A stretch of DNA of 33,664 nt, from positions 1 through 33,664 of the forward strand of contig JALHTJ010000193.1 of NCBI GenBank assembly GCA_022865785.1, written 5' to 3'. This document shows, one piece after another, positions 1 through 13,775 of the stretch. Source of the stretch: Candidatus Aminicenantota bacterium. GTDB lineage: Bacteria > Acidobacteriota > Aminicenantia > UBA2199. Position 1 is the first letter of the stretch, and every line of letters starts with the position of its first letter. A program made the position numbers and the translations under genes. A model generated the notes under the pieces. The model worked only from the letters and a program-made list of their open reading frames with translations. It was not told the origin of the DNA and did not search any database.

Positions 1-175
1 GGGATGCGTTCACTGCCAGAGTAGCGCAATCCTCATCCGGGGCCGGCACTGATTTCTCATTCAGTCCCAGGCCTTTCTTGTACGATGGAGCGTCCGCGCC
101 CCATACTTTGGCGATTTCCTCAACCCTGATTCTGTATCGCGGAATATGACTGCCATAACCAACTATTCCAATCAT
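1..175 (-). CDS. Hydroxymethylglutaryl-CoA synthase, archaeal type (N-terminal part, runs off the window)
   Basis: The 58 visible residues begin MIGIVGYGSHIPRYRI and continue through VEEIAKVWGADAP and KGLGLNEKSVP. This matches the conserved N-terminus of archaeal-type HMG-CoA synthases, which condense acetyl-CoA with acetoacetyl-CoA in the cytoplasm, the step before mevalonate. The catalytic Cys lies beyond the window edge, so activity cannot be judged. The start at 175 is chosen because GGAGG sits 5 nt upstream and because the family starts with this MIGI-like motif; an in-frame ATG at 208 has no ribosome site. The gene reads away from the defence genes to its right. In archaea this enzyme works with an SCP-x-like thiolase, and one is encoded at 21.2 kb. 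Confidence 0.85.
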   Translation of the reverse strand, partial: MIGIVGYGSHIPRYRIRVEEIAKVWGADAPSYKKGLGLNEKSVPAPDEDCATLAVNAS

Positions 176-238
176 TTCAGCCTCCATTTGTTTATTTACA
201 TTGCTCATTTTTCGATCAATCCTATTTGGTGGTCTTTT

Positions 239-267
239 AATATAAACTATTTTTTTTAAAAAGTAAA
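239..267 (-). promoter_or_regulatory. Candidate sigma70-type promoter for HMG-CoA synthase
   Basis: On the minus strand TTTACT (-35, 267-262) is separated by 17 nt from TATATT (-10, 244-239). The predicted transcript start near 232 leaves a leader of about 57 nt before the ATG at 175. Assigned by eye from consensus only; the surrounding A-rich sequence makes chance matches likely. Confidence 0.35.
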
Positions 268-329
268 TCAAAGTCAGCGCAATAAGAATGCCAAAGCAGC
301 TTCTATATTATGGAAACTCTCAGTAATCC

Positions 330-640
330 TTGTTCCTGAAAACTAAAATATCCTTATCAAAACTTAAAAAAGTAGATTTGCGCGATGTTTTGGGCCATGA
401 AGCCCTTGATTTTCCCAGCAGGAAAATCTTGATGCTTTGAGTGAAGAAATTGGCGAAACAATTGAATGGGTAGATGCCGCGGTTGCTTCCCGTATAAAAA
501 TCAAAAAGGAAGTTTCGGGAGTATTTGATCAAGTGGAGGCGGAAAAATATTTTGTTTGGCTTTATGAAAAAACCATCTTGTTCCAAAAAATATTCAGTAA
601 ATACTTCAAGGAGTTTAAAAATAATATTTATGCAAAATAG
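330..640 (+). pseudogene. Decayed DUF4268-like nuclease-family gene, internally deleted and frameshifted
   Basis: Two adjacent frames read like the two ends of one protein. The first (330-437) gives KLKKVDLRDVLGHEALDFP, typical of the N-terminus of DUF4268 proteins (KVDLREVWxHEAxDFT). The second (about 413-640, ending at a stop) gives ENLDALSEEIGETIEWVDAA followed by a segment ending in a helix rich in F and K (LFQKIFSKYFKEF), which resembles the DUF4268 C-terminal domain. A functional member is several hundred residues long, so the middle is missing. No good ribosome site is visible. The region is A+T-rich and lies at the edge of a defence island, where such remnants are common. The family match is from memory and only moderately certain. 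Confidence 0.4.
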
Positions 641-934
641 CACCTCGCATCTTATTGACGAAATCTTTGGTGAACTGGAAATCAAACACGGCTTAAAAGA
701 TTTTAATAAGTTGAGAAGTAATGCACCGAACAAGATTTTTCATCACAAAAACTGTCTTTTCAAGACTTGATCCTAATGTCCTTTTATAACCATTTTTATA
801 AATCCCCATATTTGTATCCTCCAAAAAATTTACACAAACCTATTTCAATTATGGAAAAATGTCAAATGGAATTTACTTCTAACGACAATTCTAATTCCCT
901 TTTCAATACATCTCCAAAAAATCACTTCCAGCTA
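641..934. other. Spacer with no convincing gene
   Basis: Roughly 300 bp of A+T-rich sequence between the decayed gene and the promoter of the DUF262 operon. Short open frames exist in several phases, but none has a ribosome site, a recognisable motif or coding-like composition. It may hold further eroded coding sequence. Confidence 0.5.
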
Positions 935-963
935 TTGCAATTTCAAGACAATTTTCTTAAAAT
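935..963 (+). promoter_or_regulatory. Candidate promoter of the DUF262/ATPase/unknown operon
   Basis: TTGCAA (935-940), a 17-nt spacer and TAAAAT (958-963) form a plausible sigma70-type promoter. Transcription would start near 970, about 70 nt before the ATG at 1042. No other promoter-like sequence is obvious downstream, and the next two genes overlap or abut, so all three genes probably share this transcript. Confidence 0.45.
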
Positions 964-1041
964 GCCATCATGGACGAAATTGGCTTTCCTTTAAAAGTCC
1001 ATCTATAAGGTTTTTTAAGCCAACAGGAGCATTAAACAAAA

Positions 1042-2256
1042 ATGGCATCAGAAACACAACTACCTGACCCTGAAGATACCTTCGAGGGAGAGGAAACACT
1101 CGGCGCTGAACTAAAGGAAAAATCGGCTTCGACGGAATCCGATACGACAAGCATATACCCCGATGCAATTGTTAGCATCACTGCAGAAAATGCTTCAGTT
1201 TTTCAGCTCAAGCGCAAGTTTGATAAAATACCGCCTCTCATTAAACTGGATCCTGATTATCAACGGCAATTGGTCTGGACGCCAAAGCAGAAAAGTGAAT
1301 TGATCGAATCAATTCTCATGGGGATTCCCCTTCCTCTTATTTATGTGAAGGAGGACGATAAGGGTGTGTATATCATCGTAGATGGTCGCCAACGATTGAC
1401 GACTCTTTTCAATTTCCTGAACCATGACTTTCCGCTCCAGAACCTTAATGTCTTGAAAGACCTGAATGGTTTATACTTCAGTGAAACTACAAAGAACGGA
1501 ACTAAAAATGACAAGTACCTGACCCAGGCACAGCAGAGCAAGATCGAAGATTGTCAACTCACGCTGCATGTAATCAAACCACCAACTCAGGACCGTGTCA
1601 CATTTGACTTGTTTGATAGAGTCAATCGCGGCGGTACACGACTGAATAATCAGGAAATGAGAAACGCCATTTATCAGGGCACTGCAACAAATCTTTTGAA
1701 TACTCTAGTAGCTTTTAAAAGTTTCACTGATGCTACTGAAAACTCAATTAAACCAGACCGTATGAAGGACAAATACCTTATTCTCCGATTCATCGGTTTT
1801 TACCTTTGGCGCAAAGGACTACTTTTGTCCGTCAAAGAAAAAGGGTTTCCTAAGGTCGAATACCGCAGCGACCTTGAGGATTTTCTCGGTAAAACGATGC
1901 TGTTCCTTAACCATCAAGAGGGCAGTCCATTTTGTGCTCAATTCCCGGATCTGTTCGACAAAACCATGCGAGCATGCGGAACAGTTTTAGGCTCAGGGTG
2001 TTTCCGGCTTCCGAAAAAAAGCACTGGGCCACGTCGCCCAATCAATATGGCGTTATTTGAAACAGTAAGCTACCTGATACTTGAATTGATTGGCCAGCTA
2101 CAAGTAAAACATCAAAGCATAAAAAACAACTTCACAAAACTTCTTTCAGACAAAAAATTCATTGATAGCACGACATATACCGTCGATAGTAACGTTAGTG
2201 TCTACAAACGATTTGAGCTCATAGAAACAATCATTCAGGAGATACGAAATGCTTGA
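1042..2256 (+). CDS. DUF262 domain protein (ParB/GmrS-like fold)
   Basis: 404 residues. After a charged, probably disordered N-terminus (1-45), the DUF262 domain shows PDYQRQLVW (71-79), the family hallmark DGRQRLTTL (114-122) and FDRVNRGGTRLNNQEMRN (191-208). DUF262 is the N-terminal domain of GmrS/GmrSD-type modification-dependent nucleases and is related to ParB/sulfiredoxin-like NTP-binding folds. In this family the DGQQR-type motif is thought to act in nucleotide binding or hydrolysis. The C-terminal DUF1524 HNH nuclease of GmrSD is absent: residues 215-404 show no His-Asn-His pattern. Any nuclease function must therefore come from elsewhere or not exist. The ribosome site AGGAG lies rather far (12 nt) from the ATG. 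It overlaps the next gene by 8 nt, indicating translational coupling with the ATPase. Confidence 0.85.
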   Translation: MASETQLPDPEDTFEGEETLGAELKEKSASTESDTTSIYPDAIVSITAENASVFQLKRKFDKIPPLIKLDPDYQRQLVWTPKQKSELIESILMGIPLPLIYVKEDDKGVYIIVDGRQRLTTLFNFLNHDFPLQNLNVLKDLNGLYFSETTKNGTKNDKYLTQAQQSKIEDCQLTLHVIKPPTQDRVTFDLFDRVNRGGTRLNNQEMRNAIYQGTATNLLNTLVAFKSFTDATENSIKPDRMKDKYLILRFIGFYLWRKGLLLSVKEKGFPKVEYRSDLEDFLGKTMLFLNHQEGSPFCAQFPDLFDKTMRACGTVLGSGCFRLPKKSTGPRRPINMALFETVSYLILELIGQLQVKHQSIKNNFTKLLSDKKFIDSTTYTVDSNVSVYKRFELIETIIQEIRNA

Positions 2257-3313
2257 AGCACTTCATATTCAAGGATACAAATGTTTCGACACAGTCGAAA
2301 TATCATTGCGGCGGATCAATATTTTATCGGGGACGAATTCATCGGGTAAGTCTACCGCAATTCAGGGGTTTCTTCTGCTTTGTAATAATGCTGTTAAAAA
2401 TTCACCATCGCCACTTAATGGAATGTGGTTGCGCTTGGGTTCTTTTGATGAATGCCGCAATCATCGGACAAATGCACGTTCCTTCCGAGTTGGAGTTACA
2501 AGCGGAAAAAAATCTTTTAAAGCAGAGTTTTGCTCAGCTGACGATGATAAAAATGATGTCAAAGTTACATTTATTGATGAATCTGAAGCAATTCAAAACC
2601 TCTTAAGCCTCGAGAATCGTCACGTATACTATCTCCCCGCAAACCGGGTTGGTCCTGAGGATTCATATCCAAAGAATTTTGACTGGGTGAATTTTCTAGG
2701 GAACAAGGCGGAATTCATTGTCGATTTTCTGTACAAAAACCGCAAGAAAGAAGTTGCACCGTCGCTTATTGCCGACACAGCAAGCGTAACGCTTGAACAT
2801 CAAGTTAATTACTGGCTGATGAAATTGTTCGGAATCAAAAATAAAATCCAAGACCTTGGACTCAGCAATAGCCTTTCATTGGAATTCTCTCTTGAAAATG
2901 GCAAGTTCATCCGACCATATCACATGGGATCTGGCGTCAGCTTTGCCATCGGAGTGCTTGTTTCATGTCTAAGCGCAAATCCAGACGATATCGTTGTCAT
3001 TGAAAATCCGGAAATTCACCTTCATCCCAAGGCACAATCCGACCTGACGGAGTTTCTTTGCTTCGCAGCTAATGCGGGTATTCAGGTTGTACTTGAAACG
3101 CATAGCGACCATGTGTTCAATGGTATCCGAAAAGCCATTGTTAAAAAAAGGATTGCCAATACTGATGTGGCTTTGCACTTTTTCCAGCTTGATGAAAATG
3201 CACTTTCAAAAAACACGTCCATCGTTATCAATCAGCATGGCCGCATCATGAAGCACACCCAAGGCCTGTTTGACCAGTTTGACGATGACCTCGACCAGAT
3301 TTTGGGGCTCTGA
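2249..3313 (+). CDS. AAA family ATPase, DUF3696/OLD-like (SMC-type P-loop)
   Basis: 354 residues, soluble. It opens MLEALHIQGYKCFDTVEISL, the usual start of RecF/OLD-like ATPases, followed by Walker A GTNSSGKST (28-36). The C-terminal half carries the ABC-type signature region GSGVSF (about 227-232), Walker B with IVVIENPEIHLHP (248-260) and the switch histidine in LETHSDH (282-288). The ENPE-HLHP form is typical of the DUF3696 group. Unlike OLD nucleases there is no Toprim domain: the protein ends shortly after the ATPase core with an acidic tail, so it is an ATPase sensor or motor without its own nuclease. It starts inside the stop region of the DUF262 gene, with AGGAG 7 nt ahead of the ATG, and ends 1 nt before the third gene. 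Confidence 0.88.
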   Translation: MLEALHIQGYKCFDTVEISLRRINILSGTNSSGKSTAIQGFLLLCNNAVKNSPSPLNGMWLRLGSFDECRNHRTNARSFRVGVTSGKKSFKAEFCSADDDKNDVKVTFIDESEAIQNLLSLENRHVYYLPANRVGPEDSYPKNFDWVNFLGNKAEFIVDFLYKNRKKEVAPSLIADTASVTLEHQVNYWLMKLFGIKNKIQDLGLSNSLSLEFSLENGKFIRPYHMGSGVSFAIGVLVSCLSANPDDIVVIENPEIHLHPKAQSDLTEFLCFAANAGIQVVLETHSDHVFNGIRKAIVKKRIANTDVALHFFQLDENALSKNTSIVINQHGRIMKHTQGLFDQFDDDLDQILGL

Positions 3314-3314
3314 C

Positions 3315-4151
3315 TTGCAGATACTCTTCAACGAACTTTCTTTGACAGGCCAATTCCATGATCAAGATGCTTTTATCAAAAATGGTCTTCTTCTGTTTGT
3401 TGGTGTGCTGAAAGAAATGCAGAGATTTTCAACAGTACTGCTCAAGAGGAGCGATGCATGGAACAAAATGATCACACCGTCCATCACTCTGCACTCGTTT
3501 CTTATCAATAATGCATTTCGAAAATCCGACGAGGTTCGTCGTTGGAAATTAGCAATCGTCGACCTTACCAAAGAACCGTTCTGGGATCACGATAGCAAAC
3601 AGAATCCTGATTCTACATATCTTTTGGATGGGGCCGATATCCGGGGCAGTTCGTCCGCCGAGGCATGCGAGCGAGACAAGGCTATTGTTTCCTTTGTTTC
3701 ATCATCCGCGTCGATAGATCCATTGAATATCATTCGGAATGGAATAAATGTTCCATTATTGAATCTGACTCGTTCAGGTAAACTAATTGAATCTCTTTGG
3801 ACAAATAAGCATATTTCTTTTGAATCATATCTGAAAACTCGGTTTTCAGGAGGCAAACTTGATTTTTCGAAAGTTGAGAAGAAGATTGATTTTAATAAAA
3901 TTCAATCTGAAGAACAATTTCTTTTCATTGGCACATTCAAAAAAATCGAGGGATTGACCTGGGATCAGGTCTATTCTGACAAAGGCCTTGACTACAAGGA
4001 ATATCATGGAAATATTAGTGTACATAACCGAAGTATAAAAACATATAAGTTCAGGGCATCAAAAAAAATCCGCTGCCACGGGTATCGAGAGAAGGATTCG
4101 TTTGTTATTGTCGGCTTTGAGATCGACCACAAATTGAGTGATCGGGGATGA
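3315..4151 (+). CDS. Uncharacterised third gene of the DUF262/ATPase operon; candidate effector
   Basis: 278 residues from a TTG start one base after the ATPase stop, with GGGG 7 nt upstream. An ATG at 3270 is also open but would overlap the ATPase by 44 nt and add residues unlike the rest. With the TTG start the protein begins MQILFNELSLTGQF, which I recall as a common opening for proteins found next to DUF3696 ATPases (weak memory). No membrane segment or known nuclease motif is visible. The last about 60 residues have the pattern YKFRASKKIRCHGYRE then FVIVGFEIDHKLSD. This alternation of basic strands and a final D-H-K resembles RelE/ParE-like toxin cores, but the likeness is only a suggestion. 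The tight coupling argues that it works with the two upstream products. Confidence 0.7.
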   Translation: MQILFNELSLTGQFHDQDAFIKNGLLLFVGVLKEMQRFSTVLLKRSDAWNKMITPSITLHSFLINNAFRKSDEVRRWKLAIVDLTKEPFWDHDSKQNPDSTYLLDGADIRGSSSAEACERDKAIVSFVSSSASIDPLNIIRNGINVPLLNLTRSGKLIESLWTNKHISFESYLKTRFSGGKLDFSKVEKKIDFNKIQSEEQFLFIGTFKKIEGLTWDQVYSDKGLDYKEYHGNISVHNRSIKTYKFRASKKIRCHGYREKDSFVIVGFEIDHKLSDRG

Positions 4152-4192
4152 TCAAACCCAAGGTATACTCTAATTGGGGAGAAGAAAGAAAA

Positions 4193-4378
4193 CGGAAAAA
4201 ATCGTACGCTAAGGAATATCTGTTTTAAATAACATTGGTTTGTCGGGGATCTTGAACATTTCTCTAAAATGAGTTTTTTACGGATATTCTCAAAAGAGCA
4301 GCAATAACCACATTCTTGGGAGTGCCGATATAGAAGGATTTGTAGAATTCGTAAAAGCTTAACGTACGATTTTTTCCG
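4193..4378. repeat. Imperfect 21-bp inverted repeat pair between convergent operons
   Basis: The 21 bases at 4193-4213 (CGGAAAAAATCGTACGCTAAG) recur as reverse complement at 4358-4378 with one mismatch. The copies are 144 bp apart, too far for a usual terminator hairpin. The enclosed DNA has no clear gene. The layout resembles the ends of a small non-autonomous element (MITE) or a remnant of a larger one, but no target duplication is evident. Confidence 0.5.
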
Positions 4379-4407
4379 AATTCTGCGTTGACCCTATATA
4401 TAAAAAC

Positions 4408-7400
4408 CTAATCATCTTCGCTACTCTCATTAATCAAACTTTTTCTCTGTGTATTTGACAAAGATTTCTTAATATGTGCGATCTCGTTCGCCGTCAGGTC
4501 GAAAAGCCGATAGACAATTTCGTCAATCTCCTGTTCCGTCTTCCGCAGGCCCTCAATGTCCCCTCCCTTCGCCTGGTTGGACGCACGTTCAACAAGCTTA
4601 GTCAGGAGCGACTTGTCAACTGAACTTACTGATGGAATGGGGACTTGATGCATCCGGTTTCCCCTGAACTGGATGCGTCCAGAACTCCACGGATCACCCC
4701 ATGACGGAAACGTTGACCGGTAGAACCAATCCATTAGAGTTGAGTTTAACACTGCGAGAACATACGGTGCATCAGGCGTGAGTATGATGAATCCTGTTTT
4801 GTTGATGACGTTTTTATCTTTGTCAAAATAGGCATGTAATCGTTTTGAGGTCTCATTGAAGACAATTTTTGACTCGTCGAATGCTGCGATATAAGACTCC
4901 GCCGGATTGTTATCCAATTCGAGCCAGTGATGCTGTCCCTCGCTCGCTCCGCTTCGCGATGTCTTGCATTGGCCACGCGCTTTCAGTTCTTTCTCAAACT
5001 GCGCCAGATGGCGGGAAATAGCGGGATATTTTTTCAGTTCGGTGTGAAATCCGTATCGCACGATGATTATGTAGAGATCATGGAATTCGTGGAGCCAGCG
5101 TTTGATATCCTTGCCACGAATCCAAGGTTTAATTAGTTCAGTGGATTTCCGATCTTCTTGAATCAACCGATCACGCTTGGCTCGGTTAATAACGAAAGCC
5201 TCATTGAAGCCAGTAATGACTCCACGATAAAACCGGCCTTTCACATATTGGACCAGCGGGATTCCTTTTGACCGGAGTTTATCTACCAAAGAAAGGCCAT
5301 CATTCCCTTCAAGAGACCAACCATCAACTTTAAGTTGCTCCGGCTTGTAGCGCACCCCACGGGTTGCGAGAGACTCCGCCAGCGACCCGAACTCGGCTTC
5401 ATCCTTAATTACTACAACCGGAAACTCATGGTTCATGCGAGGCGCGCCCTTGTTAATAATAACAATCATCGGATCCGTGGCGGCATCAAAAACAGGCAAT
5501 TCGCAAAAGTCAATGAGCGCCTGTATGCAATGGGACCCAAGGAGTTGACGCAAGCCTCTGCCATATCCAGTCCTTTGAAACTTATTCGAGCTAATGAAAG
5601 TCAACACTCCACCATCGCGTATGAGTTCAAGTCCCCGCTCGTAGAAAAAGCAATAGATGTCACCCCGCGATGCATAAGTCTTAAATCGGCGCTTCCACTC
5701 CATTTGCTGTGCCGTACGAGCGAACTTCTCGACTGAAATATATGGCGGATTTGCAATCATTACATCAAAACCACCCTTCTTGTGAAACACCTCGGAAAAA
5801 AAGACTTCAAAATCAAATTCCTTATGGCCATTTGTAATTTGACATATCAAATCGTCAATTTGCTTTTTATATTTTTGCTTTTTAGTAGGATTTGTCTCAT
5901 TGAAATAAAGAGGCTTTATTTTTTCAAGTTCAGAAAAGAACTTCTCATTAAACAAATTCTTCTCTACATCAAACAGTGAATTCCCGCAGACTATTTTGTA
6001 ATCAAGGTTAGGGAGAGGTTTGATATTCTTTATGTCATCTTCATCCACTACAAGCGATAGCCATAAACGAAGCTTGGCGATCTCTACTGCACCAGGATCG
6101 ATGTCTACCCCATAGAGGGAATGTTCGATGCAGCGACGTTTGAAATCGTAGGTTGTGCGATTCGTTTTTTGATCACTAAAAGTGGTTAGAACTGTTCTTA
6201 CTCGGACGATCTCGTTCATCATACCCACGGGGAAAGCACCAGAGCCCACTGCCGGATCGCATACTGTGATTTCGGAAAGCTTTTGGTCGATCCTTTCAGC
6301 ATTGACACGGATGCTTTCGGGTAGTTGATAGTAATAAGTGCTGGTTTCCTTGCCCTTACTTTCCACACGGGCTTCGTTTTCGCTGACATTTTCACCGTGA
6401 TGAATCAATTTTTCTATTTCTTCTTTTGAAACAAAAGGATATTTTCGGTGTTCAACAATAAAATCCAGTTGGCCTTTCTTGTTTTTATTGTCGAACAATA
6501 CAAGATTTTCATCACCGATTTTTTCCAGATTAACACGACCAGAGTTCAGCTCGGTAAAAAGATAACTGGTCAGACTTTGTTGGCACATGTAATGAACAAT
6601 CTCGCGCGGGGTGTAATAAACGCCGAATTGTTTATTGAATTTGGTTTCATCGCCTTTTTTACCGCTCTTCAGAGCCTGTTTGTAATCTTCAAAATTATCG
6701 GGCCGAATGGCGTTGAATTTTTCATAAGCTTTGCCCAGCAGCTCGGGGTCTATGGCTACTTCCTTTTCCAGCGGTTCGTCTTCCTTGACTGTGAAATTAT
6801 AGCGGTCAAAGATATCAAGAATACCATCACCAGAATCGCCTTCTTTGGTCTTGCTTTGATTGGAAAAAAGGTCATTGGGGAAAAGAATGTCAGTATTATA
6901 CCAATTGTAATTGCCGATCGGATCAAATAATCCTCCATTCAAAAAAGGGATTTTGCTTTTAAAATGGTCATTCCAATGATCTATGTCTGAACGATCTCTG
7001 GATAACGCATCATAAAAAAGTGGTTCGAGAATGTCATTGAAAAAATTCTTGTATTTGCCATGCTTGCTTTCAAAAAGTTCCCGCAGAAAATTTTTTGAAC
7101 CGCTTCCCCATTCTGCATTGCGAGCAACACCAAACCACCCTTTTTTCTGCAGGAAATATAGGAATATGATCTGCCCCAAAAGTTTTTTAGCAAAGTCGAC
7201 GGTATTCACACCCTTGCTTATAAAATCAGCCTGAACGCTAGGATCATGTTGAACCACCTTATCCAGCGCCTCCTTGGTGCGAATAAACAGATCGCGGTAC
7301 TCACGAAAGAACTCCTTGGTAACCGTTTCAATGTTGAACGCTTCTTCTATTTGTTCTAGGGTTGGTGATTTTTCATCTTCTGCCAAGATATTAACCAACC

Positions 7401-7899
7401 TGCTTTGAGCAGTATGACTTCTCTCATTTGCGCCTACCAGGAACGACCAACGCCGGGCCGGAGTGAATTCTTCCTTCACTTTCATCATGCCGGTCGGAGT
7501 CTGTTCGAATTTGTACTCCATTTTGACCAACGAAAATCTCCAGTCTTCATCATCCGGTGAAACAAATGCAAAAAGACCAGCGTCTTTCTGGCCCCGATCA
7601 GACAGATATTTTCCAGCAAAATTTCGCTGTGTCACCCGGGCATGGTGAATGGAATATGATTTTTGCAGATAGGCAATGATGATGTCGATCTTTTTACCGT
7701 CAGGAGCCTCATAAGAACCAATGCGTTCGTAGGTTTTAATGACGTTGCGGAAACTCTCTTTCACATCACCGCGGACATGAAATGCTTTTGTCTCATCAAT
7801 TCTGTTCAATAAGTTTTTAATAAATACAATGAAGTGCTCTTTATTAAATGGTTTTTCCAAAATATCTCGGATGAGAGAGCGCGCCTGAAGTTTATCCAT
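4408..7899 (-). CDS. Eco57I-type N6-adenine DNA methyltransferase, large (modification/specificity subunit)
   Basis: 1163 residues. The AdoMet-binding motif I DPAVGSGAFP is at 548-557 and catalytic motif IV NPPY at 717-720, the order of gamma-class N6-adenine methyltransferases of the Eco57I/type IIG group. The segment before motif I contains FGVYYTPREIV (425-435), a hallmark of this group. The C-terminal about 300 residues, with the ITGFNEAFVI and IQFRGNRMHQVPIP stretches, form the TaqI/Eco57I-like target-recognition region. The N-terminal about 200 residues (with KKIDIIIAYLQK near 69-80 and WRFSLVKMEY near 120) are conserved in my memory of this group, and a degenerate nuclease fold there cannot be excluded. 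It is the second gene of the operon: ATG 2 nt after the helicase stop, with GGAGAC inside the helicase end as ribosome site. It probably supplies target recognition and self-protection to the helicase-nuclease. Confidence 0.88.
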   Translation of the reverse strand: MDKLQARSLIRDILEKPFNKEHFIVFIKNLLNRIDETKAFHVRGDVKESFRNVIKTYERIGSYEAPDGKKIDIIIAYLQKSYSIHHARVTQRNFAGKYLSDRGQKDAGLFAFVSPDDEDWRFSLVKMEYKFEQTPTGMMKVKEEFTPARRWSFLVGANERSHTAQSRLVNILAEDEKSPTLEQIEEAFNIETVTKEFFREYRDLFIRTKEALDKVVQHDPSVQADFISKGVNTVDFAKKLLGQIIFLYFLQKKGWFGVARNAEWGSGSKNFLRELFESKHGKYKNFFNDILEPLFYDALSRDRSDIDHWNDHFKSKIPFLNGGLFDPIGNYNWYNTDILFPNDLFSNQSKTKEGDSGDGILDIFDRYNFTVKEDEPLEKEVAIDPELLGKAYEKFNAIRPDNFEDYKQALKSGKKGDETKFNKQFGVYYTPREIVHYMCQQSLTSYLFTELNSGRVNLEKIGDENLVLFDNKNKKGQLDFIVEHRKYPFVSKEEIEKLIHHGENVSENEARVESKGKETSTYYYQLPESIRVNAERIDQKLSEITVCDPAVGSGAFPVGMMNEIVRVRTVLTTFSDQKTNRTTYDFKRRCIEHSLYGVDIDPGAVEIAKLRLWLSLVVDEDDIKNIKPLPNLDYKIVCGNSLFDVEKNLFNEKFFSELEKIKPLYFNETNPTKKQKYKKQIDDLICQITNGHKEFDFEVFFSEVFHKKGGFDVMIANPPYISVEKFARTAQQMEWKRRFKTYASRGDIYCFFYERGLELIRDGGVLTFISSNKFQRTGYGRGLRQLLGSHCIQALIDFCELPVFDAATDPMIVIINKGAPRMNHEFPVVVIKDEAEFGSLAESLATRGVRYKPEQLKVDGWSLEGNDGLSLVDKLRSKGIPLVQYVKGRFYRGVITGFNEAFVINRAKRDRLIQEDRKSTELIKPWIRGKDIKRWLHEFHDLYIIIVRYGFHTELKKYPAISRHLAQFEKELKARGQCKTSRSGASEGQHHWLELDNNPAESYIAAFDESKIVFNETSKRLHAYFDKDKNVINKTGFIILTPDAPYVLAVLNSTLMDWFYRSTFPSWGDPWSSGRIQFRGNRMHQVPIPSVSSVDKSLLTKLVERASNQAKGGDIEGLRKTEQEIDEIVYRLFDLTANEIAHIKKSLSNTQRKSLINESSEDD

Positions 7900-7901
7900 A
7901 A

Positions 7902-10900
7902 TTAGTCTCCACTCATATACATGGATAGGATAACTTCCCGCTTACCAGAAATCGCCGGATTCTGTTCAGAATAGTGCCCTTCAAGTAATTTCTCCGGAAT
8001 ATTGGTTTGCAAAATTGCCAGCACCTTGAAGGGATTGATAATTTCATTTTTTAAATCATTTAGGCTTTTCAATGTTTGTTTGGTTGTTTGCTTGGGCAAG
8101 CCGCCCTCTTCAAGTTGCTTCAAAACTTTTTTCAGATAAATTTCCTGATCATCAGTCAGCTTTTGAGTATTCTTCAAGGTTGCCTTCAAAATTTGCATAA
8201 TGAGGGTTGCACTATCGCGTCCACCTCGTTGCTTTTGTTGCGGTAATTCTTCACTAGTCGCAAAAATGAACGCCTTTTTGTTTTTGTCCAACAAGTCGTA
8301 ATATCCTTCGGGGATTTTTGTTTTTGCTTCGTTGGGAAGACTCTCCAGCAATTTCGCCGCTGAGATGAAGTCAAGCTCTTTTGCTTCTGGAGGGTTGGCT
8401 GCCAAATAAAATTTCTGTAGCTTTCCGCGCCGGAAATAGGTGAGAAGTGAATTTTTTTCTTTGAGCTGCTGCTTTGCTGTGCGCGCTTTTCTAGCCAAAC
8501 GCTTTACCTTTTCAAACAAATCGGGATTTTGATCGCGGATTTCTTTGATCACGTTTAAATACTTAAGTGGGCTTTCTCCTGCATCCTCCTCACCTTCCAA
8601 TGTTTTTTTGGAAAGCAAACGGTTAAAAAGTTCATGGGATCCAATAGGCTCCCCCTCGGTTAACAGCTCAGCATCGCCGCCCAGCAGAGTGAGGAAGGCG
8701 TTGATTTTGGCTTCAGCTGCTTCTTTAAGCTTGATTTGGTCGTTGGCTTGCCGAGTAGGGAAAAAATTATATGTAAAAATCTTATCAAAAACCGTATCTA
8801 CCCGGTTAATGCGTCCGACCCGTTGCATCATACGAGTTGGGTTCCAGGGAATATCATAGTTGATTACCGTGTTGGCCCGGTGCAGGTTTACGCCTTCGGC
8901 TAGCACTTCGGTGGATACCAGTATTCGGTACTCGTTCTTGGGATGCCGGGCCCTGGCGTCAAAGTTGGCAATGACTTTGTCTCGCGTAGCCACGCTTGAG
9001 CCACCGGTATAACACAATACAGTACCCGGAAATTTTTGCTGTAAATTAGTGAACAAGTAATTAGCTGTTTCCTTTGATTCAGTAAAAATAATCAGGTGAT
9101 TTTTTTGCAAACCCTTATCAATGGACAAATCATGCAAAAATTTGATAAGTTTGGGATCTCGTTCAATATGTATCCAAAGGTTTTTTATCTTCAGTAAAAT
9201 ATCACGATCAGCTTGCAGATGGAGCAGAAAGTTTTCACCGAATTCACTGCTATTATAGCGATTGGCTTTGCCTTCATCAATCAGATGTTGCACGGCTTCA
9301 TCATCATCGTTTTCCAACATTTCAAAGATTTTATTTGTAAATTTTTTACTTACATATACATTGCCATTGTTAAATTCTTTGATAAACATTTCGTAGGAAT
9401 ACAAAAACCGATCGATCGAATTCCTGAAAGCAAAGAAACTGCTTTCCAGGCGTTTAACCAAAAGGATTTTCATGAACCGTCCCATGTTTCGCTGCGATTG
9501 TTTTTCTAATGGATCAATTTCACCTTGAAAATAGAGCATCGGCATATAGCGGGCATATTTGAATTTTGTAGCAATCAGTTCAATGGTTTGATTGAATATG
9601 TCGTCTTCTTTTTCATTCAGTTCGTAAAAAAAGGGGACCGGTTTTTCTATGGTAGGAAATTTTAATCCTTGCTTGGTTATATCTTCGGAAAAATATTTTT
9701 CGATCTCGGTTCGGGTGCGGCGTACCATCAAATATTTCAAAACTTTTTCTCGAATTTCACCGGCGTTTTCCTTTACGGTGCGGATGTATTTAGCATTATC
9801 CTTCTGCCGGTCCAGTTTTTTAAGCTTCCCCTCCAGATAGCCAAAGAAACCTTCCAGATCAGGCAAGTTGGGAATTGTACTTTTTTTAGCCTTCTGAAAC
9901 AACTTGAGCAAGCTGAGAATATCCCGGGGCGAATTGTTGTATGGAGTTGCGGTTACCAACATTACCCTTTTACCACGGCAAATTTCTGCCAATTTTTCAT
10001 AAGTCATGGTTGTTTCAGTGCGAAAACGATGCGCTTCGTCGATGACAATATTGTCATATTTTTGAGTACCATGATCGACGAGGTAGTCGAGTTTGCCCAA
10101 AGATTCATAATCGGCCGAAACACGGAAATCGGAAAACACATTGGGCCAGGAACCAGGGTTGGCTTTATCCAGAAGCACTGGAGGAGCAATGACCAGCGTC
10201 CTACCGTCAAGTTGTCCGGCCAGCATAGCCGAAATATAAGTTTTACCCAAACCAACAACATCGGCAATAAAAACACCGCCAAATTCGAGTAAAATCTTTT
10301 TGGCGTTTAAAACCGCCTGCTTTTGGTAAGCGAGTTTCATAAATTCCACAGGTAGATATTTTGCGAAAACCTCGTCTGTTTGGCTGAGTTCATCTTTGAA
10401 ATATTCATAAAGAAATTTCAAATAAAGTTCATATGGGGTTATGTTTTGATTAAGCCAAGTTTTTTCATTTATTGTCTGAACAAACCTTGGACCAACATCA
10501 ACCGCATCTTTCCACAACTCGTTGAATTTTTGTCTGGCAAATTCGAAATCACCTCGATTCTTTAATTCCACATTAAATTCCAGATTGTCGATAAGTCCAG
10601 CCCTGCTAAAGTTGCTGGAGCCGGTGATTACCCGTCCGGTATCCATATTGCTTTCTTTGAAAGTCATAATGTAAAGCTTGGCGTGGATATTCCGAGTTGG
10701 ATAAGCGTAAATTTCCAATTTGCCATTATTTCGCCATTCAATGAATTTATTCACTCCCGTTTCAACATTTTTGTTATCTTCAGAATCAATCAGATCTTGT
10801 TCAACCAAACTGTCAACTTTTTCCTTGGTTTCGGCATGGGAAAATTCAATTGCGCGTTGCTCTGGTTTTTCGACTTGTTCAAGCAAATCAAAGGTTTGTT

Positions 10901-11099
10901 TGTTGGTGCCAATACCAATCAAAATGCGTATTTTCTCTGTATTTTCAAGAGCTTTGTATATGGCGTGAAAACCGCTAATATAAAAAAACCCAACCAGGCA
11001 ATCAAAATAGGAAGTGTTTTTAATTAATATTTCAAAACGTTTTTTTAAACTTTGATTGTTTTCATTGGTGATAAATGTTAAATCCGCATTTGCTGGCAT
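7902..11099 (-). CDS. PLD-family nuclease fused to SNF2-type helicase (restriction translocase)
   Basis: 1065 residues. The N-terminal domain (1-200) is a phospholipase-D-like nuclease with one HKD motif: NIHAKLYIM (H139, K141) then GSSNFS (160-165); such domains dimerise to form the active site. A superfamily-2 helicase follows: Walker A GLGKT (283-287), DEAH (354-357), TATP (383-386), and motifs V/VI in STEVLAEGVNL and MMQRVGRINR (around 735-775). The C-terminal about 250 residues are helical and charged and of unknown role. The combination suggests an ATP-driven DNA translocase that cuts. It precedes the methyltransferase by 2 nt, so the pair resembles a type ISP (LlaGI-like) enzyme divided over two polypeptides, with PLD replacing the PD-(D/E)xK nuclease. 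It differs from DISARM, where the PLD protein is separate and DUF1998 proteins are present. Confidence 0.87.
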   Translation of the reverse strand: MPANADLTFITNENNQSLKKRFEILIKNTSYFDCLVGFFYISGFHAIYKALENTEKIRILIGIGTNKQTFDLLEQVEKPEQRAIEFSHAETKEKVDSLVEQDLIDSEDNKNVETGVNKFIEWRNNGKLEIYAYPTRNIHAKLYIMTFKESNMDTGRVITGSSNFSRAGLIDNLEFNVELKNRGDFEFARQKFNELWKDAVDVGPRFVQTINEKTWLNQNITPYELYLKFLYEYFKDELSQTDEVFAKYLPVEFMKLAYQKQAVLNAKKILLEFGGVFIADVVGLGKTYISAMLAGQLDGRTLVIAPPVLLDKANPGSWPNVFSDFRVSADYESLGKLDYLVDHGTQKYDNIVIDEAHRFRTETTMTYEKLAEICRGKRVMLVTATPYNNSPRDILSLLKLFQKAKKSTIPNLPDLEGFFGYLEGKLKKLDRQKDNAKYIRTVKENAGEIREKVLKYLMVRRTRTEIEKYFSEDITKQGLKFPTIEKPVPFFYELNEKEDDIFNQTIELIATKFKYARYMPMLYFQGEIDPLEKQSQRNMGRFMKILLVKRLESSFFAFRNSIDRFLYSYEMFIKEFNNGNVYVSKKFTNKIFEMLENDDDEAVQHLIDEGKANRYNSSEFGENFLLHLQADRDILLKIKNLWIHIERDPKLIKFLHDLSIDKGLQKNHLIIFTESKETANYLFTNLQQKFPGTVLCYTGGSSVATRDKVIANFDARARHPKNEYRILVSTEVLAEGVNLHRANTVINYDIPWNPTRMMQRVGRINRVDTVFDKIFTYNFFPTRQANDQIKLKEAAEAKINAFLTLLGGDAELLTEGEPIGSHELFNRLLSKKTLEGEEDAGESPLKYLNVIKEIRDQNPDLFEKVKRLARKARTAKQQLKEKNSLLTYFRRGKLQKFYLAANPPEAKELDFISAAKLLESLPNEAKTKIPEGYYDLLDKNKKAFIFATSEELPQQKQRGGRDSATLIMQILKATLKNTQKLTDDQEIYLKKVLKQLEEGGLPKQTTKQTLKSLNDLKNEIINPFKVLAILQTNIPEKLLEGHYSEQNPAISGKREVILSMYMSGD

Positions 11100-11165
11100 T
11101 TCTGAGTCTCTCCCGCTTGATTAAGCTAAATAAATGCAAAATATTGTTTTTCAATCGGTATTTTC

Positions 11166-11194
11166 TTAATATCATAAAGCAAATAAAAATTCAA
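11166..11194 (-). promoter_or_regulatory. Candidate promoter of the helicase/methyltransferase operon
   Basis: Minus-strand TTGAAT (11194-11189), a 17-nt spacer and TATTAA (11171-11166) lie about 70 nt upstream of the helicase ATG. Both hexamers match 4 of 6 consensus bases. A GGGAG ribosome site lies about 10 nt from the ATG. Confidence 0.3.
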
Positions 11195-11243
11195 TAAGGA
11201 AGGGCAGTGACAGTGCTTGCAATTTTGCCCTCTTCATGCCTTT

Positions 11244-11395
11244 TTATAAACCGAACTCTCCAGTTTCAATCACTCGCTTTTGATCAGGGACCAAAATTCG
11301 TTGGCCAGGCCTTCCAGGACATAGGCATAGGGCAGCCAGCCGTAGCCTTTCTCGCCCCATTCTGTTCCCCAGTCCCCCCCCGCATTGAACCCAGA
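11244..11395 (-). pseudogene. 3' remnant of a C1A (papain-like) cysteine protease gene, copy 1
   Basis: Directly after the Fic stop codon the minus strand reads GGDWGTEWGEKGYGWLPYAY and continues to WSLIKSE before a stop. The WGxxWGxxGYGWLPY pattern matches the active-site Asn region and C-terminus of bacterial C1A peptidases (usual form NSWGxxWG). Compared with copy 2, a single base is lost inside the Trp codon of the SEW-IETGEFGL tail, which creates the premature stop; after the shift the tail IETGEFGL resumes up to TAA at 11246-11244. There is no protease N-terminus upstream because the Fic gene is there instead, so the fragment is dead. Confidence 0.6.
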
Positions 11396-12514
11396 CTACC
11401 TGAACAGCGCCAGGTAATCGCTGAGCGCGAACAAGCGGTTGCGGGAATGCCCGGTCACCTCTTTCAGGAATCCGAAGCGCTGGAAATCGGTGATCATCCT
11501 GGCGGCGGCGGCAAAGCCGAATTTCAAGTGATCGGCCGTCTGGGCGATCGACACCACGGGATGCGAAAAAAGAAAAAGCAGGAATTGCTCCGCCATTTTC
11601 GATTTTCTGCCCATGGTCATGATTTTCTCCTCATAGGCTTTGCGCAGCTTGACGATGGCGGCCAGGGTCTCCTTGCCGCTCCTGGCCGTGGCCGCAACCC
11701 CGGTCAGGAAGAATTTTATCCACTGGTCCAGGTCATTGGCACTGCGAACCACGCTGAGCGAATCGTAATAGGATCCCTTGTTCCTTTCGAAAAAATCGGA
11801 CAGGTACAGCGTCGGCTTCTGCAGGAATTTCAGGTCGACCAGCTGCAAGGTGATCAGCAGCCTGCCAATGCGGCCATTGCCGTCCAGGAACGGATGGATG
11901 GTTTCAAACTGGTAGTGACTGATGGCGATCTTGATCAGTTCGGGAACGACCAGTTCCCGGTTGTGCCAGTATTTTTCCAGGTCGGTTAGCAGGTTCGGCA
12001 GGTCATCATGGTGCGGCGGGATGAAGAACGCATCCTTGAGGCTCGAGCCGCCGATCCAATTTTGACTGCGCCTGACATCACCGGGAAGCTTGTGCTCTCC
12101 CCGCACACCCGCCAGCAGTTTTTTATGGGTTTCCTTCAGTAGCCGCATGGATAAAGGCAAATGATCGAGCTCCTGAATGGCGAAATTCATGGCCCGGATA
12201 TAATTCTGCACTTCCTCCCAGTCATCTTTTTTTTCAGGGCTTATTTCGCTTTCCGGGAGGACCACGTCATTGATATCCGTTCGGGTCCCTTCCAGGCGAC
12301 TCGATGTCGTAGCCTCTTTGGCGACATGCATTTTTATGAAAAACTCCACGTCCGGGACCAACGTGGAATAGGCATTCAGTTCACCCAAATATCTCATTGT
12401 CTCTTCGAGCTGCATGACAATATGTTTGTCTTTCCATTCATAGATCTGGTTGATCAGCGACGGCATAAAGCTCTTGTATTCATATTGTTGCTTGTAACTT
12501 CCCGCCTTGAACAT
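11396..12514 (-). CDS. Fic family protein AMP-transferase (class II) with C-terminal winged-helix region
   Basis: 372 residues. The Fic core has the full active motif [12 protein letters not shown] (207-218), so transfer of AMP from ATP to a hydroxyl of a target protein is expected. An inhibitory helix motif S-x3-E-G (S71-E75-G76 in TSSRLEGT) precedes the core, which places it in class II, self-inhibited from the N-terminal side. The segment about 310-372 ([20 protein letters not shown] and what follows) looks like a winged helix-turn-helix, common in this subgroup and compatible with DNA binding. The ATG has GAGG 6 nt upstream. It is a single gene with its own promoter and lies between two remnants of one protease gene, so it may have arrived with or within a duplication. 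The target is unknown. Confidence 0.9.
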
Positions 12515-12556
12515 AATTTACCTCACCATTCTCCTAAACTAATAATACACCTATTG

Positions 12557-12585
12557 TAATTATCATTTAATCAAGGTAATGTCAA
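12557..12585 (-). promoter_or_regulatory. Promoter of the Fic gene with overlapping inverted repeat
   Basis: Minus-strand TTGACA (12585-12580), 17 nt, TAATTA (12562-12557). A perfect 9-bp inverted repeat, aattatcat at 12558-12566 and atgataatt at 12587-12595, covers the -10 and lies just upstream of the -35. That is a natural place for an operator, possibly bound by the Fic protein's own winged-helix region. Confidence 0.5.
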
Positions 12586-12630
12586 TATGATAATTTTTAT
12601 TTTCATTTAAAGCCACTATAAAGCGGAAAT

Positions 12631-12657
12631 TAGGAAAAATAGGAAAAATAGGAAAAA
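12631..12657. repeat. Three tandem copies of a 9-mer
   Basis: TAGGAAAAA is repeated exactly three times upstream of the Fic promoter. It is short, A-rich and probably a slippage product; no function is implied. Confidence 0.7.
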
Positions 12658-12702
12658 TATTGGTGCCTGGTCTTTCATTATTACTTTTTCTATTTGACTT
12701 GT

Positions 12703-12808
12703 TTACAACCCGAACTCGCCAGTTTCGATCCACTCACTCTTGATCAGTGACCACCATTCATCTGCCAGGCCTGCCAAGAGATATTCGTTTGGCAGCCAGC
12801 CATAGCCT
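12703..12808 (-). pseudogene. 3' remnant of a C1A cysteine protease gene, copy 2
   Basis: The minus strand reads GYGWLPNEYLLAGLADEWW, then SLIKSEWIETGEFGL and TAA. About 100 bp are close to 80 percent identical to 11250-11351, in the same orientation, with one single-base indel. A stop codon lies immediately before GYGW, so only the last about 34 codons remain. With copy 1 it brackets the Fic gene as a direct repeat. Confidence 0.55.
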
Positions 12809-12903
12809 TACATCTCCGTGTTTTTTTTATAATATATTTTTCATTATTGTATATCCACAAAAAAATTCAACCTTTTCAAAAGGCCTGAGATTATTTTAAC
12901 AAA

Positions 12904-12932
12904 TTGACAATTTCCCCTTTCGCGCTTACAAT
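12904..12932 (+). promoter_or_regulatory. Strong sigma70-type promoter of the TPR gene
   Basis: TTGACA (12904-12909), 17-nt spacer, TACAAT (12927-12932): a near-consensus promoter. Transcription would start near 12940, about 23 nt before the ATG at 12963, leaving just enough leader for the GGAGG ribosome site. Confidence 0.7.
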
Positions 12933-12962
12933 CCTTACAAAAAATGAAGCCTGGAGGCTAAA

Positions 12963-13775
12963 ATGACAGCTGATCATGACGATAAAAGTGGGAAAACGGA
13001 ATCCGCGGCAGGGAAAGAAATGGCCAATAGATGCGAACAGTGCGGAGAGGAACTGGCAGCCAAATACAACTTCTGCCCACTGTGCGGTAAACCCATAAAA
13101 AACAGCAATAGCGTTTCTTACTGGGTATATCAGTTGAACCTGCTGCAAGCCAAGGGCAAGATCAAGAAAGCTATCGAGGCAGCCAAGAACCTGCTGCAGG
13201 TGGACCAGCAGAATCCCTACATTCACAGTATCCTGGGTGAACTATATTACCAGGCCGGGGCCATAAACGAGTCCATCGCCAGCTACAGGAAAGCCATCGA
13301 AACCAATCCCGGCCAGGCAAAGGATCATTACAACCTGGGCATCAGTTATTACCGGAGCGGCCGGATCAGCGACGCGGTCAGCAGCTTTGAAAAGTGCCTT
13401 GATCTCGACTCCGGATTCATCGGCGCTTACTACTGGCTGGGCATTGCCTACTACCACCAGGGGAGTCAGCAGAAAGCCATCGCGGCTTTCACGAAATTGT
13501 TGGAAATGAATCCGGACTCGGTCATTGCCAACTATCACCTGGGTATCAATCTGAATGCCATCGGCCAGCACGAAAAAGCCATTCCCCACTTCCTGAAGGT
13601 CATTGAAGCCAGCCACGAAGACAAGGCCGCCCTGTACCATCTCGGCATGTCCTATTACAATCTGCGCAGGATCAACGATGCGGTGGAAACGCTGCGCAAG
13701 TCCATCGAAGCCAACCCCGACGATAAACGTTCCCGGGATGTGCTCGAAAGTATAATCAGCGTACCGGAGATTTGA
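12963..13775 (+). CDS. Zinc-ribbon and tetratricopeptide-repeat protein
   Basis: 270 residues. A short N-terminal linker is followed by a zinc ribbon with CEQC (C24, C27) and CPLC (C38, C41). Six consecutive 34-residue TPR units (about 51-265) then show the usual W/Y-x2-LG-x2-Y and A-x3-F/Y patterns (for example YNLGISYYRSG, YWLGIAYYHQG). No signal peptide or membrane helix is seen, so it is a cytoplasmic scaffold that probably binds other proteins; the partner cannot be read from sequence. GGAGG lies 5 nt from the ATG. It is transcribed alone and convergent to the mutase operon. Confidence 0.88.
   Translation: MTADHDDKSGKTESAAGKEMANRCEQCGEELAAKYNFCPLCGKPIKNSNSVSYWVYQLNLLQAKGKIKKAIEAAKNLLQVDQQNPYIHSILGELYYQAGAINESIASYRKAIETNPGQAKDHYNLGISYYRSGRISDAVSSFEKCLDLDSGFIGAYYWLGIAYYHQGSQQKAIAAFTKLLEMNPDSVIANYHLGINLNAIGQHEKAIPHFLKVIEASHEDKAALYHLGMSYYNLRRINDAVETLRKSIEANPDDKRSRDVLESIISVPEI

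What the first reader, a model, noticed from the sequence alone, without database searches (positions are those of the whole stretch)
4408..11099. Restriction-modification pair with the nuclease on the helicase and recognition on the methyltransferase
An N-terminal PLD nuclease (H139/K141) is fused to an SNF2 helicase, and the adjacent 1163-residue Eco57I-type methyltransferase carries motifs I and IV and a target-recognition region. This equals a type ISP enzyme split into two chains with a different nuclease class. Stop and start are 2 nt apart, which suggests fixed stoichiometry.
Basis: partly seen in the sequence, partly recalled or inferred. Interest (0 to 1): 0.55.

Follow-up and report, generated by a model that had tools for sequence, protein, structure and literature searches.

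The report
Widespread two-gene PLD-helicase restriction-modification system
Two neighbouring genes encode a probable bacterial anti-virus restriction system in which one protein marks and recognises DNA and the other, a motor fused to a likely cutting domain, would destroy unmarked DNA; the same gene pair recurs in many bacterial groups, with an exchangeable recognition part and a slot that holds different passenger genes.

Summary
Observation confirmed: window 7902-11099(-) encodes a PLD-SNF2 protein (1065 aa), 4408-7899(-) an Eco57I/TaqI_C-type methyltransferase (1163 aa), 2 nt apart. The pair is conserved: in 73 of 80 related loci the methyltransferase (once a remnant) follows on the same strand; the other 7 contigs end 5-1662 nt after the helicase. 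Recognition on the methyltransferase is supported by natural exchange: in the 11 pairs with helicases 84-93% identical, methyltransferases are 67-87% identical up to NPPY but 16-31% after it. Best reading: a two-subunit, ATP-dependent m6A restriction-modification system working like Type ISP/III with PLD cleavage. It is not Type ISP proper, BREX-related Type 2 (no DUF499) or DISARM. A Type IIG reading stays open: the methyltransferase N-terminus has a candidate D119...E128xK130, with K in 24 of 42 relatives. 'Fixed stoichiometry' is weak: 32 of 73 loci have 184-2132 nt between the genes, in 27 a same-strand ORF, mostly toxin- or regulator-like, exchanged almost freely on the helicase tree. Orphan copies of the methyltransferase 3' end lie downstream in 8 loci. 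No activity is shown.

The parts
7902..11099 (-). PLD-SNF2 nuclease-translocase subunit, 1065 aa
   Evidence: 69-row alignment A1; model mean pLDDT 75.9
10512..10973 (-). PLD nuclease domain, residues 43-196
   Evidence: PLDc_2 2.6e-9
10677..10685 (-). HxK motif H139/K141
   Evidence: 69 of 69 and 17 of 17 distant rows
10611..10622 (-). GSSN motif, residues 160-163
8580..10394 (-). SNF2-type motor, residues 236-840: GLGKT 283-287, DEAH 354-357, QRVGR 759-763
   Evidence: Pfam; motifs; fold matches to SNF2 proteins
7905..8579 (-). C-terminal region of the helicase, residues 841-1065; function unknown, whole-chain Foldseek hits to RapA run over it
   Evidence: not searched alone
7900..7910 (-). 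Junction: GGAG, helicase stop TAA, 2-nt spacer before the methyltransferase ATG; probable translational coupling (inference)
4408..7899 (-). Adenine methyltransferase and specificity subunit, 1163 aa
   Evidence: PADLOC PDLC03596 1210.8 bits over 1-1146; model mean pLDDT 79.8, pTM 0.77
7330..7899 (-). N-terminal domain, residues 1-190; candidate docking region (inference)
   Evidence: no significant Pfam or PDB sequence match for 1-200; alignment; correlation
7510..7545 (-). Candidate nuclease-like residues D119...E128-Y-K130 in that domain; activity doubtful
   Evidence: D119 in 41 of 42; acidic at 128 in 42 of 42; K at 130 in 24, R in 14, other in 4; no K at 130 in 12 distant rows
6610..7329 (-). 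Residues 191-430; start of the BrxX-like part; divergence tracks the helicase most closely
6232..6258 (-). Motif I, DPAVGSGAF, residues 548-556
5740..5751 (-). Motif IV, NPPY, residues 717-720; left edge of the exchanged cassette
4624..5739 (-). Exchangeable specificity cassette, residues 721-1092, includes TaqI_C
4450..4623 (-). Conserved C-terminal tail, residues 1093-1150; orphan copies occur downstream in 8 relatives
11396..12514 (-). SoFic-like Fic protein upstream on the same strand; possible accessory gene, not a conserved part
   Evidence: Fic_N and Fic; PADLOC SoFic 377.4 bits; flanking families reach at most 5 loci apart from cut methyltransferases

Best explanation
A two-subunit, ATP-dependent restriction-modification system. 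The methyltransferase binds an asymmetric site through its exchangeable C-half and methylates adenine, probably on one strand. The PLD-SNF2 subunit docks on the methyltransferase (most likely on residues 1-430), is loaded onto DNA at unmethylated sites, moves along DNA by ATP hydrolysis, and cuts through a PLD active site formed between two chains when complexes meet or stall. Shown here: the gene pair, intact PLD, motor and methyltransferase motifs, conserved linkage, exchange of the C-half independent of the helicase, co-divergence of the helicase with methyltransferase residues 1-430. Inferred: the complex, methylation, translocation, cleavage, phage defence.
For: Domains. Linkage in 73 of 80 loci and 12 of 15 from the other side. 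HxK, GSSN and helicase motifs kept in 17 distant rows. For 35 pairs, helicase identity correlates with methyltransferase 1-720 (Spearman 0.60; 0 of 1000 permutations as high) and not clearly with 721-end (0.13; 112 of 1000); N-half against C-half -0.003. L042/L099: 37/40 identical at 681-720, 7/37 at 721-760. 31 groups at 45% identity among 42 cassettes. Partial rank correlation with the helicase: residues 1-190 0.35, 191-430 0.53, 500-720 -0.02 (no permutation test). The methyltransferase model matches CamA, BrxX, LlaBIII and MmeI; the helicase model matches SNF2 motors. SauUSI, a PLD-motor enzyme, is a dimer held by its PLD domains with ATP-driven movement (PMC7913695, passages). Setting: NsnABC beside it; GC 0.36-0.49 over 1-13000, 0.45-0.62 beyond.
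Against: No methylation, cleavage or phage data. Co-divergence may only reflect co-transfer; the raw correlation of the helicase with the methyltransferase core is 0.37 and that of the PLD domain with 1-190 only 0.23. The SauUSI match is poor as a superposition (TM 0.19/0.24, rmsd 29.4). Methyltransferase frames are often interrupted: 7 of 48 closed ORFs are under 1000 aa, and L057 has only a 237-aa remnant; decay and assembly error were not told apart.
Confidence: 0.7

Rival explanations
1. The methyltransferase is a complete Type IIG restriction enzyme with its own N-terminal nuclease; the PLD-SNF2 gene is a helper or a separate defence protein.
For: PADLOC PDLC03596 REase_MTase_IIG matches 1-1146 with 1210.8 bits. 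The N-terminal part lies where MmeI has its nuclease (alignment begins at 159 on MmeI 158). D119 (41 of 42) is followed by an acidic residue at 128 (42 of 42) and K (24) or R (14) at 130; the window has E-Y-K.
Against: K130 is R in 14 and another residue in 4 of 42; among 12 distant rows (two the same gene) none has K at 130 and only 3 have D119. The other candidate, D72...K80, has L at 78 in 42 of 42. Comparison with PF20464-type N-termini gave about 1% probability, from small and partly wrong sets. The domain was not folded alone. The close pairing with the helicase is unexplained.
Confidence: 0.16
2. An epigenetic or signalling locus: the methyltransferase marks DNA and the PLD-SNF2 protein acts in repair, or kills the cell when marks are lost, rather than restricting incoming DNA.
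For: Toxin-like cargo sits in and beside the operon.
Against: Divergent specificity cassettes, a helicase tree that mixes phyla and defence neighbours suit restriction better.
Confidence: 0.08
3. It is a reduced member of a larger named system (DISARM class 1, BREX-related Type 2, or CxC-ABC/PbeABCD) that lost its other genes.
For: Weak relatives in PADLOC and NCBIfam include DrmD, DrmMI, HKD+Snf2 (C3a139), NF042964, HmaA and PbeA; HKD-helicase plus methyltransferase occurs in BR Type 2 and CxC-ABC systems.
Against: Scores far below NCBIfam cut-offs (132 of 610, 131 of 1100). No DUF499 in the 95%-complete genome, with a control that rang. No third gene is present in most loci: in the slot SLFN_AlbA_2 in 12 of 73, in the flanks at most 5 loci apart from cut methyltransferases.
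Confidence: 0.06

Closest known systems
Type ISP restriction-modification (LlaBIII, LlaGI)
   Same: ATP motor, gamma-order methyltransferase, C-terminal recognition; methyltransferase model aligns with LlaBIII, Z 24.2
   Different: Two chains; PLD where Type ISP has an Mrr-like PD-QxK nuclease (review passage); SNF2-like motor
Type III restriction-modification
   Same: Two genes; recognition on the methylating subunit, motor and nuclease on the other (recalled)
   Different: C-terminal recognition part after motif IV and PLD nuclease here; Type III Mod order and Res nuclease are recalled
SauUSI (Type IV)
   Same: N-terminal PLD fused to an SF2 motor, ATP-dependent (passages); Foldseek rank 25, loose
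   Different: SauUSI reads 5mC with its own recognition domain; no methyltransferase partner (recalled)
CglI / NgoAVII
   Same: PLD nuclease, SF2 ATPase and methyltransferase in one restriction system (abstracts and passage)
   Different: PLD and B3 recognition domain on a separate R protein, helicase on another
BREX-related Type 2 systems
   Same: HKD nuclease at the N-terminus of a Swi2/Snf2 helicase plus N6-methyltransferase
   Different: Those have a DUF499 ATPase and usually DUF3780; no DUF499 in this genome
CxC-ABC ATPase / PbeABCD systems
   Same: HKD-SF2 helicase, with a DNA methylase among the recruited parts (passages)
   Different: ABC-ATPase with DndE core; no such conserved partner seen here
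PADLOC REase_MTase_IIG PDLC03596
   Same: Matches the methyltransferase at full length
   Different: The label implies one chain with its own nuclease and says nothing of the helicase partner

Membership tests
Type ISP | Single polypeptide nuclease-motor-methyltransferase-TRD | tested here: not met
   Two ORFs with stop and new start; separate genes in relatives
Type ISP | Mrr-like N-terminal PD-QxK nuclease on the motor chain | tested here: not met
   PLDc_2 in that position; feature from review passage
Type ISP | Gamma-order methyltransferase with C-terminal TRD | tested here: met
   Motif I 548, NPPY 717, TaqI_C 925-1066; LlaBIII alignment
Type ISP | ATP-driven translocation and head-to-head cleavage | not testable with these tools
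   Only motor motifs seen
Type III | Two subunits in a complex, recognition on the methylating one | tested here: inconclusive
   Two genes and exchange pattern; complex not shown
Type III | Beta-order Mod with central TRD (recalled) | tested here: not met
   Motif I before IV, TRD C-terminal
Type III | PD-(D/E)xK nuclease at the Res C-terminus (recalled) | tested here: inconclusive
   No Pfam nuclease there; C-terminal part not searched alone
Type IIG | Nuclease and methyltransferase in one chain | tested here: inconclusive
   Candidate D119...(D/E)128x(K/R)130, K in 24 of 42 and in 0 of 12 distant rows; domain fold not tested alone
BREX-related Type 2 | DUF499 ATPase | tested here: not met
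   0 of 1 genome (94.91% complete), control rang in Thermotoga maritima
BREX-related Type 2 | DUF3780 | tested here: inconclusive
   0 of 142 genomes but the control was silent
BREX-related Type 2 | HKD nuclease at the N-terminus of an SNF2 helicase | tested here: met
DISARM class 1 | DrmD above the NCBIfam cut-off | tested here: not met
   132.1 bits, cut-off 610
DISARM class 1 | DrmA/DrmB (DUF1998/MZB, recalled) in the locus | tested here: not met
   No such Pfam hit in 19 window ORFs; one MZB match on another contig of the genome
CxC-ABC / PbeABCD | ABC-ATPase and DndE partners | tested here: inconclusive
   No DndE among Pfam hits of 19 window ORFs and no such widespread flanking family; no profile search for either, and the window's NsnB is an ABC-type ATPase of another system
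SauUSI Type IV | SRA-type recognition domain at the C-terminus of the PLD-motor chain | tested here: inconclusive
   No such Pfam match; region not folded or searched alone
CglI / NgoAVII | PLD nuclease and B3 domain on one protein, helicase on another | tested here: not met
   PLD is fused to the motor

The most novel reading that the evidence does not exclude
The operon is an exchange platform. Incoming DNA replaces the recognition cassette between two conserved arms (upstream of NPPY, and the C-terminal tail) and often brings a toxin-like gene along; the displaced 3' end stays behind as a scar. The cargo genes may guard the restriction complex, as PrrC guards a Type I system (recalled), firing when it is blocked by a phage. 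Tail scars would then record past changes of specificity.
Probability: 0.2. Interest if true: 0.72.

Novelty: new variant of a known kind. Interest (0 to 1): 0.52.

Why it matters
A conserved two-gene system that the libraries searched either label as generic Type IIG or do not name may be a common ATP-dependent restriction system of environmental bacteria. If right, it adds a PLD-powered counterpart to Type ISP/III, gives ready-made natural experiments on where specificity lies (near-identical motors with unrelated recognition halves), and offers a direct test of whether toxin-like genes inserted in restriction operons guard them.

Tried and rejected
Rejected: membership in Type ISP proper, DISARM class 1 and BR Type 2 (see Membership tests). 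Phase variation by mononucleotide runs: runs of 9 or more A/T or 7 or more C/G occur in 4 loci (L033, L036, L055, L070), none in L037 or L065 whose methyltransferase frames are broken; longer repeat units were not tested. Promoter and terminator scan of 4100-12700: 14 and 9 sites, no more than shuffles. N-terminal domain of the methyltransferase as a known nuclease fold: no significant sequence match, profile comparison inconclusive (L122 and L134 in the MmeI-type set were other ORFs, so it is weak). VIA/Foldseek lists do not test the PLD domain, the helicase C-terminus or methyltransferase 1-190 separately; identities and ranks are unreliable where few columns aligned (L065, L071, L086, L023).

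Literature: ten searches; two searches returned no paper; in the other listings I recognised none on a two-gene PLD-SNF2/Eco57I system. Nine papers were opened: outlines with abstracts, passages and sections 28 and 30 of PMC12839542. The library holds open-licence PMC papers only, so absence from print is not shown.

Dropped before counts: the scan kept the best 80 of 167 relatives; L001-L021 are not in the 80-locus counts; 4 of 72 full-length helicases (L088, L093, L094, L097, long insert) were left out of A1; A2 holds 41 complete methyltransferases plus the window, of 63 ORFs captured; A3 holds 31 of those 42; 8 of 69 tree rows had no cargo label. L057 is counted among the 73 although its methyltransferase is a remnant, and its gap value is an artefact. 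In one search, 7 of 19 hits outside own genes were set aside by my judgement.
Full report
What is there. A GGAG lies in the helicase 3' end just ahead of the methyltransferase ATG, so coupled translation is plausible (inference). Nothing in the window looks like a third subunit: NsnABC lies convergent at 1042-4151 (PADLOC 357.7, 316.6 and 276.7 bits), a SoFic-like Fic gene upstream, then metabolic genes. The defence half is lower in GC.

A conserved pair. A genome scan found 167 relatives of the helicase and kept the best 80 (61-80% identity in the listing), from 23 named phylum-rank groups, with 14 loci unplaced. In 73 of 80 a methyltransferase match follows on the same strand; the other 7 contigs end 5-1662 nt after the helicase. 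Of the 73, 38 have 0-15 nt between the genes and 32 have 184-2132 nt. L057 keeps only a remnant of the methyltransferase. From the other side, 12 of 15 methyltransferase matches in 14 of 396 genomes have the helicase upstream. More distant plasmid copies exist: Parabacteroides distasonis has helicase then methyltransferase; in Thermus oshimai a DNA methyltransferase gene lies upstream instead. Frames are not always whole: 7 of 48 closed methyltransferase ORFs are under 1000 aa, and the helicase ORFs of L066 and L080 are short; I did not tell decay from assembly error.

Where recognition lies. In 35 pairs, mean identity is 70% for helicases, 64% for methyltransferase 1-720 and 25% for 721-end. 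L054/L061 have helicases 93% identical, N-halves 87%, C-halves 27%; L027/L042, with helicases 82% identical, share C-halves at 76%. The break falls at NPPY. The tail at 1121-1160 is again shared (23/27 in L054/L061). Among 42 methyltransferases there are 31 groups of cassettes at 45% identity; 5 of the 6 groups with more than one member hold more than one named phylum. The window's cassette has relatives of 31-38% identity over most of its length in other methyltransferases, among them a Lactococcus cremoris plasmid enzyme at 34%. This is the pattern expected if specificity sits in the C-half of the methyltransferase and the motor is indifferent to it.

Where cleavage lies. The PLD residues H139, K141, S161, N163 and E174 are kept in 69 near and 17 distant rows. 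The helicase model lists SauUSI at Foldseek rank 25, but as a loose superposition (TM 0.19/0.24); SauUSI is a PLD-linked dimer that moves on DNA by ATP hydrolysis (passages). By analogy the PLD site here would form between two chains (inference). Against a single nuclease: the methyltransferase N-terminal domain has D119 in 41 of 42, an acidic residue at 128 in 42 of 42, and at position 130 K in 24 and R in 14 of 42. That spacing could suit a PD-(D/E)xK site. It is not kept in 12 more distant rows (no K at 130, D119 in 3), where R121, R150 and G156 are kept in 11, 12 and 11. I judge a nuclease there less likely, not excluded.

How the subunits may meet. Helicase identity tracks methyltransferase residues 191-430 (raw 0.61, partial 0.53) and 1-190 (0.39, 0.35); for the core 500-720 the raw value is 0.37 and the partial -0.02. 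Residues from about 192 onward align with BrxX from its residue 1 (Z 26.9, rmsd 4.8, 692 residues), so 1-190 is an addition relative to BrxX. I read 1-430 as the docking region; this is correlation only.

Cargo. Of 29 gaps of 642 nt or more, 27 hold a same-strand ORF of 90 aa or more; L039 and L077 do not. By Pfam for ten proteins of nine loci and BLAST clusters for the rest: SLFN_AlbA_2 type 12 (L031 only 23-29% like the others), Bro-N 7, one each RhuM, HepT with nucleotidyltransferase, PIN, DUF559, AbiEii, DUF3800, TumE, and a HigBA-like pair judged by eye. On the helicase tree the four cargo states need 22 changes, shuffled mean 24.1, as low in 26 of 200: close to free exchange. Similar accessory genes in Type I loci are recalled; one search listed no paper on it that I recognised.

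Tail copies. A profile of the methyltransferase tail gave 60 hits in 80 loci plus the window and 0 in reversed sequences. 41 are the genes' own tails. Of the other 19, I set 7 aside as own tails of broken or unlisted methyltransferases (L023 first hit, L050, L057, L058, L065 first hit, L079, L084). That leaves 12 in 8 loci (L023, L038, L065, L071, L072, L086, L095, L101), all downstream on the same strand; two of the 8 (L023, L065) have broken methyltransferases. The script's own count was 10 of 40 loci with a closed ORF and 1.5 kb or more downstream. In L095 five copies of a 133-nt 3' end (orphans 71-86% identical to the first) alternate with DUF2283, DUF5615/YhcG_C and Bro-N genes; over the last 102-105 nt the four orphan copies are 89-92% identical to the own tail. 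In L086 the present gene ends differently and a standard tail lies beyond a DUF3800 gene. In L038 and L101 the copies are 64% and 72% like the own tail, near the between-locus mean of 67%, which suggests import. The window has none. I read these as scars of past exchanges; the mechanism is open.

What it is called. PADLOC labels the methyltransferase Type IIG and matches the helicase weakly (C3a139 HKD+Snf2, 145.9 bits). Neither protein reaches an NCBIfam cut-off. Of known systems with an HKD-SNF2/SF2 helicase and a methyltransferase, BR Type 2 has DUF499 and the CxC-ABC systems an ABC-ATPase with DndE; DUF499 is absent from this genome and no third gene is widespread in the loci. I therefore call it a new variant of ATP-dependent restriction-modification, working like Type ISP/III, with no activity shown.

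Noticed in passing
L088, L093, L094, L097 (helicase residue ~876); methyltransferases of L039 and L046; L167 1132-6495: In-frame inserts of about 200 aa lie inside the helicase of four loci; Pfam Y1_Tnp 3e-8 and 6e-8 in the two tested. Similar stretches are inside the methyltransferases of L039 and L046 and, by eye, L167, which also has a repeated peptide array just before NPPY. The ORFs stay open. 'REP-associated transposase' is my recalled reading.
   Followed up: partly
L165 (Lactococcus cremoris pJM1F) 1-7251: A helicase gene (PLD not testable, 5' end cut from the stretch) and a methyltransferase, followed by an inverted TaqI_C-annotated cassette and a serine DNA invertase; a 321-nt, 71% inverted repeat links the methyltransferase C-half and the cassette: a probable invertible specificity switch in a related layout.
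   Followed up: partly
window 1042-4151 (+): NsnABC-like defence genes (GmrSD_N protein, AAA ATPase, NsnC) convergent with the pair.
   Followed up: no
L057 9986-14735: Intact PLD-SNF2 helicase ORF followed by a Bro-N-like gene and only a 237-aa methyltransferase remnant.
   Followed up: partly
L072 8412-10667 and L058 16596-18848: Large ATPase genes directly after the methyltransferase that look by eye like RloC/PrrC-type proteins; no family search was made.
   Followed up: no
L166 (Nostoc plasmid pn2) 2380-10014: TaqI_C methyltransferase, two further genes, then a PLD-SNF2 helicase: the reverse gene order.
   Followed up: no
G016 contig C349 6844-7531: Only short pieces of both genes match side by side, probably a decayed copy.
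   Followed up: no
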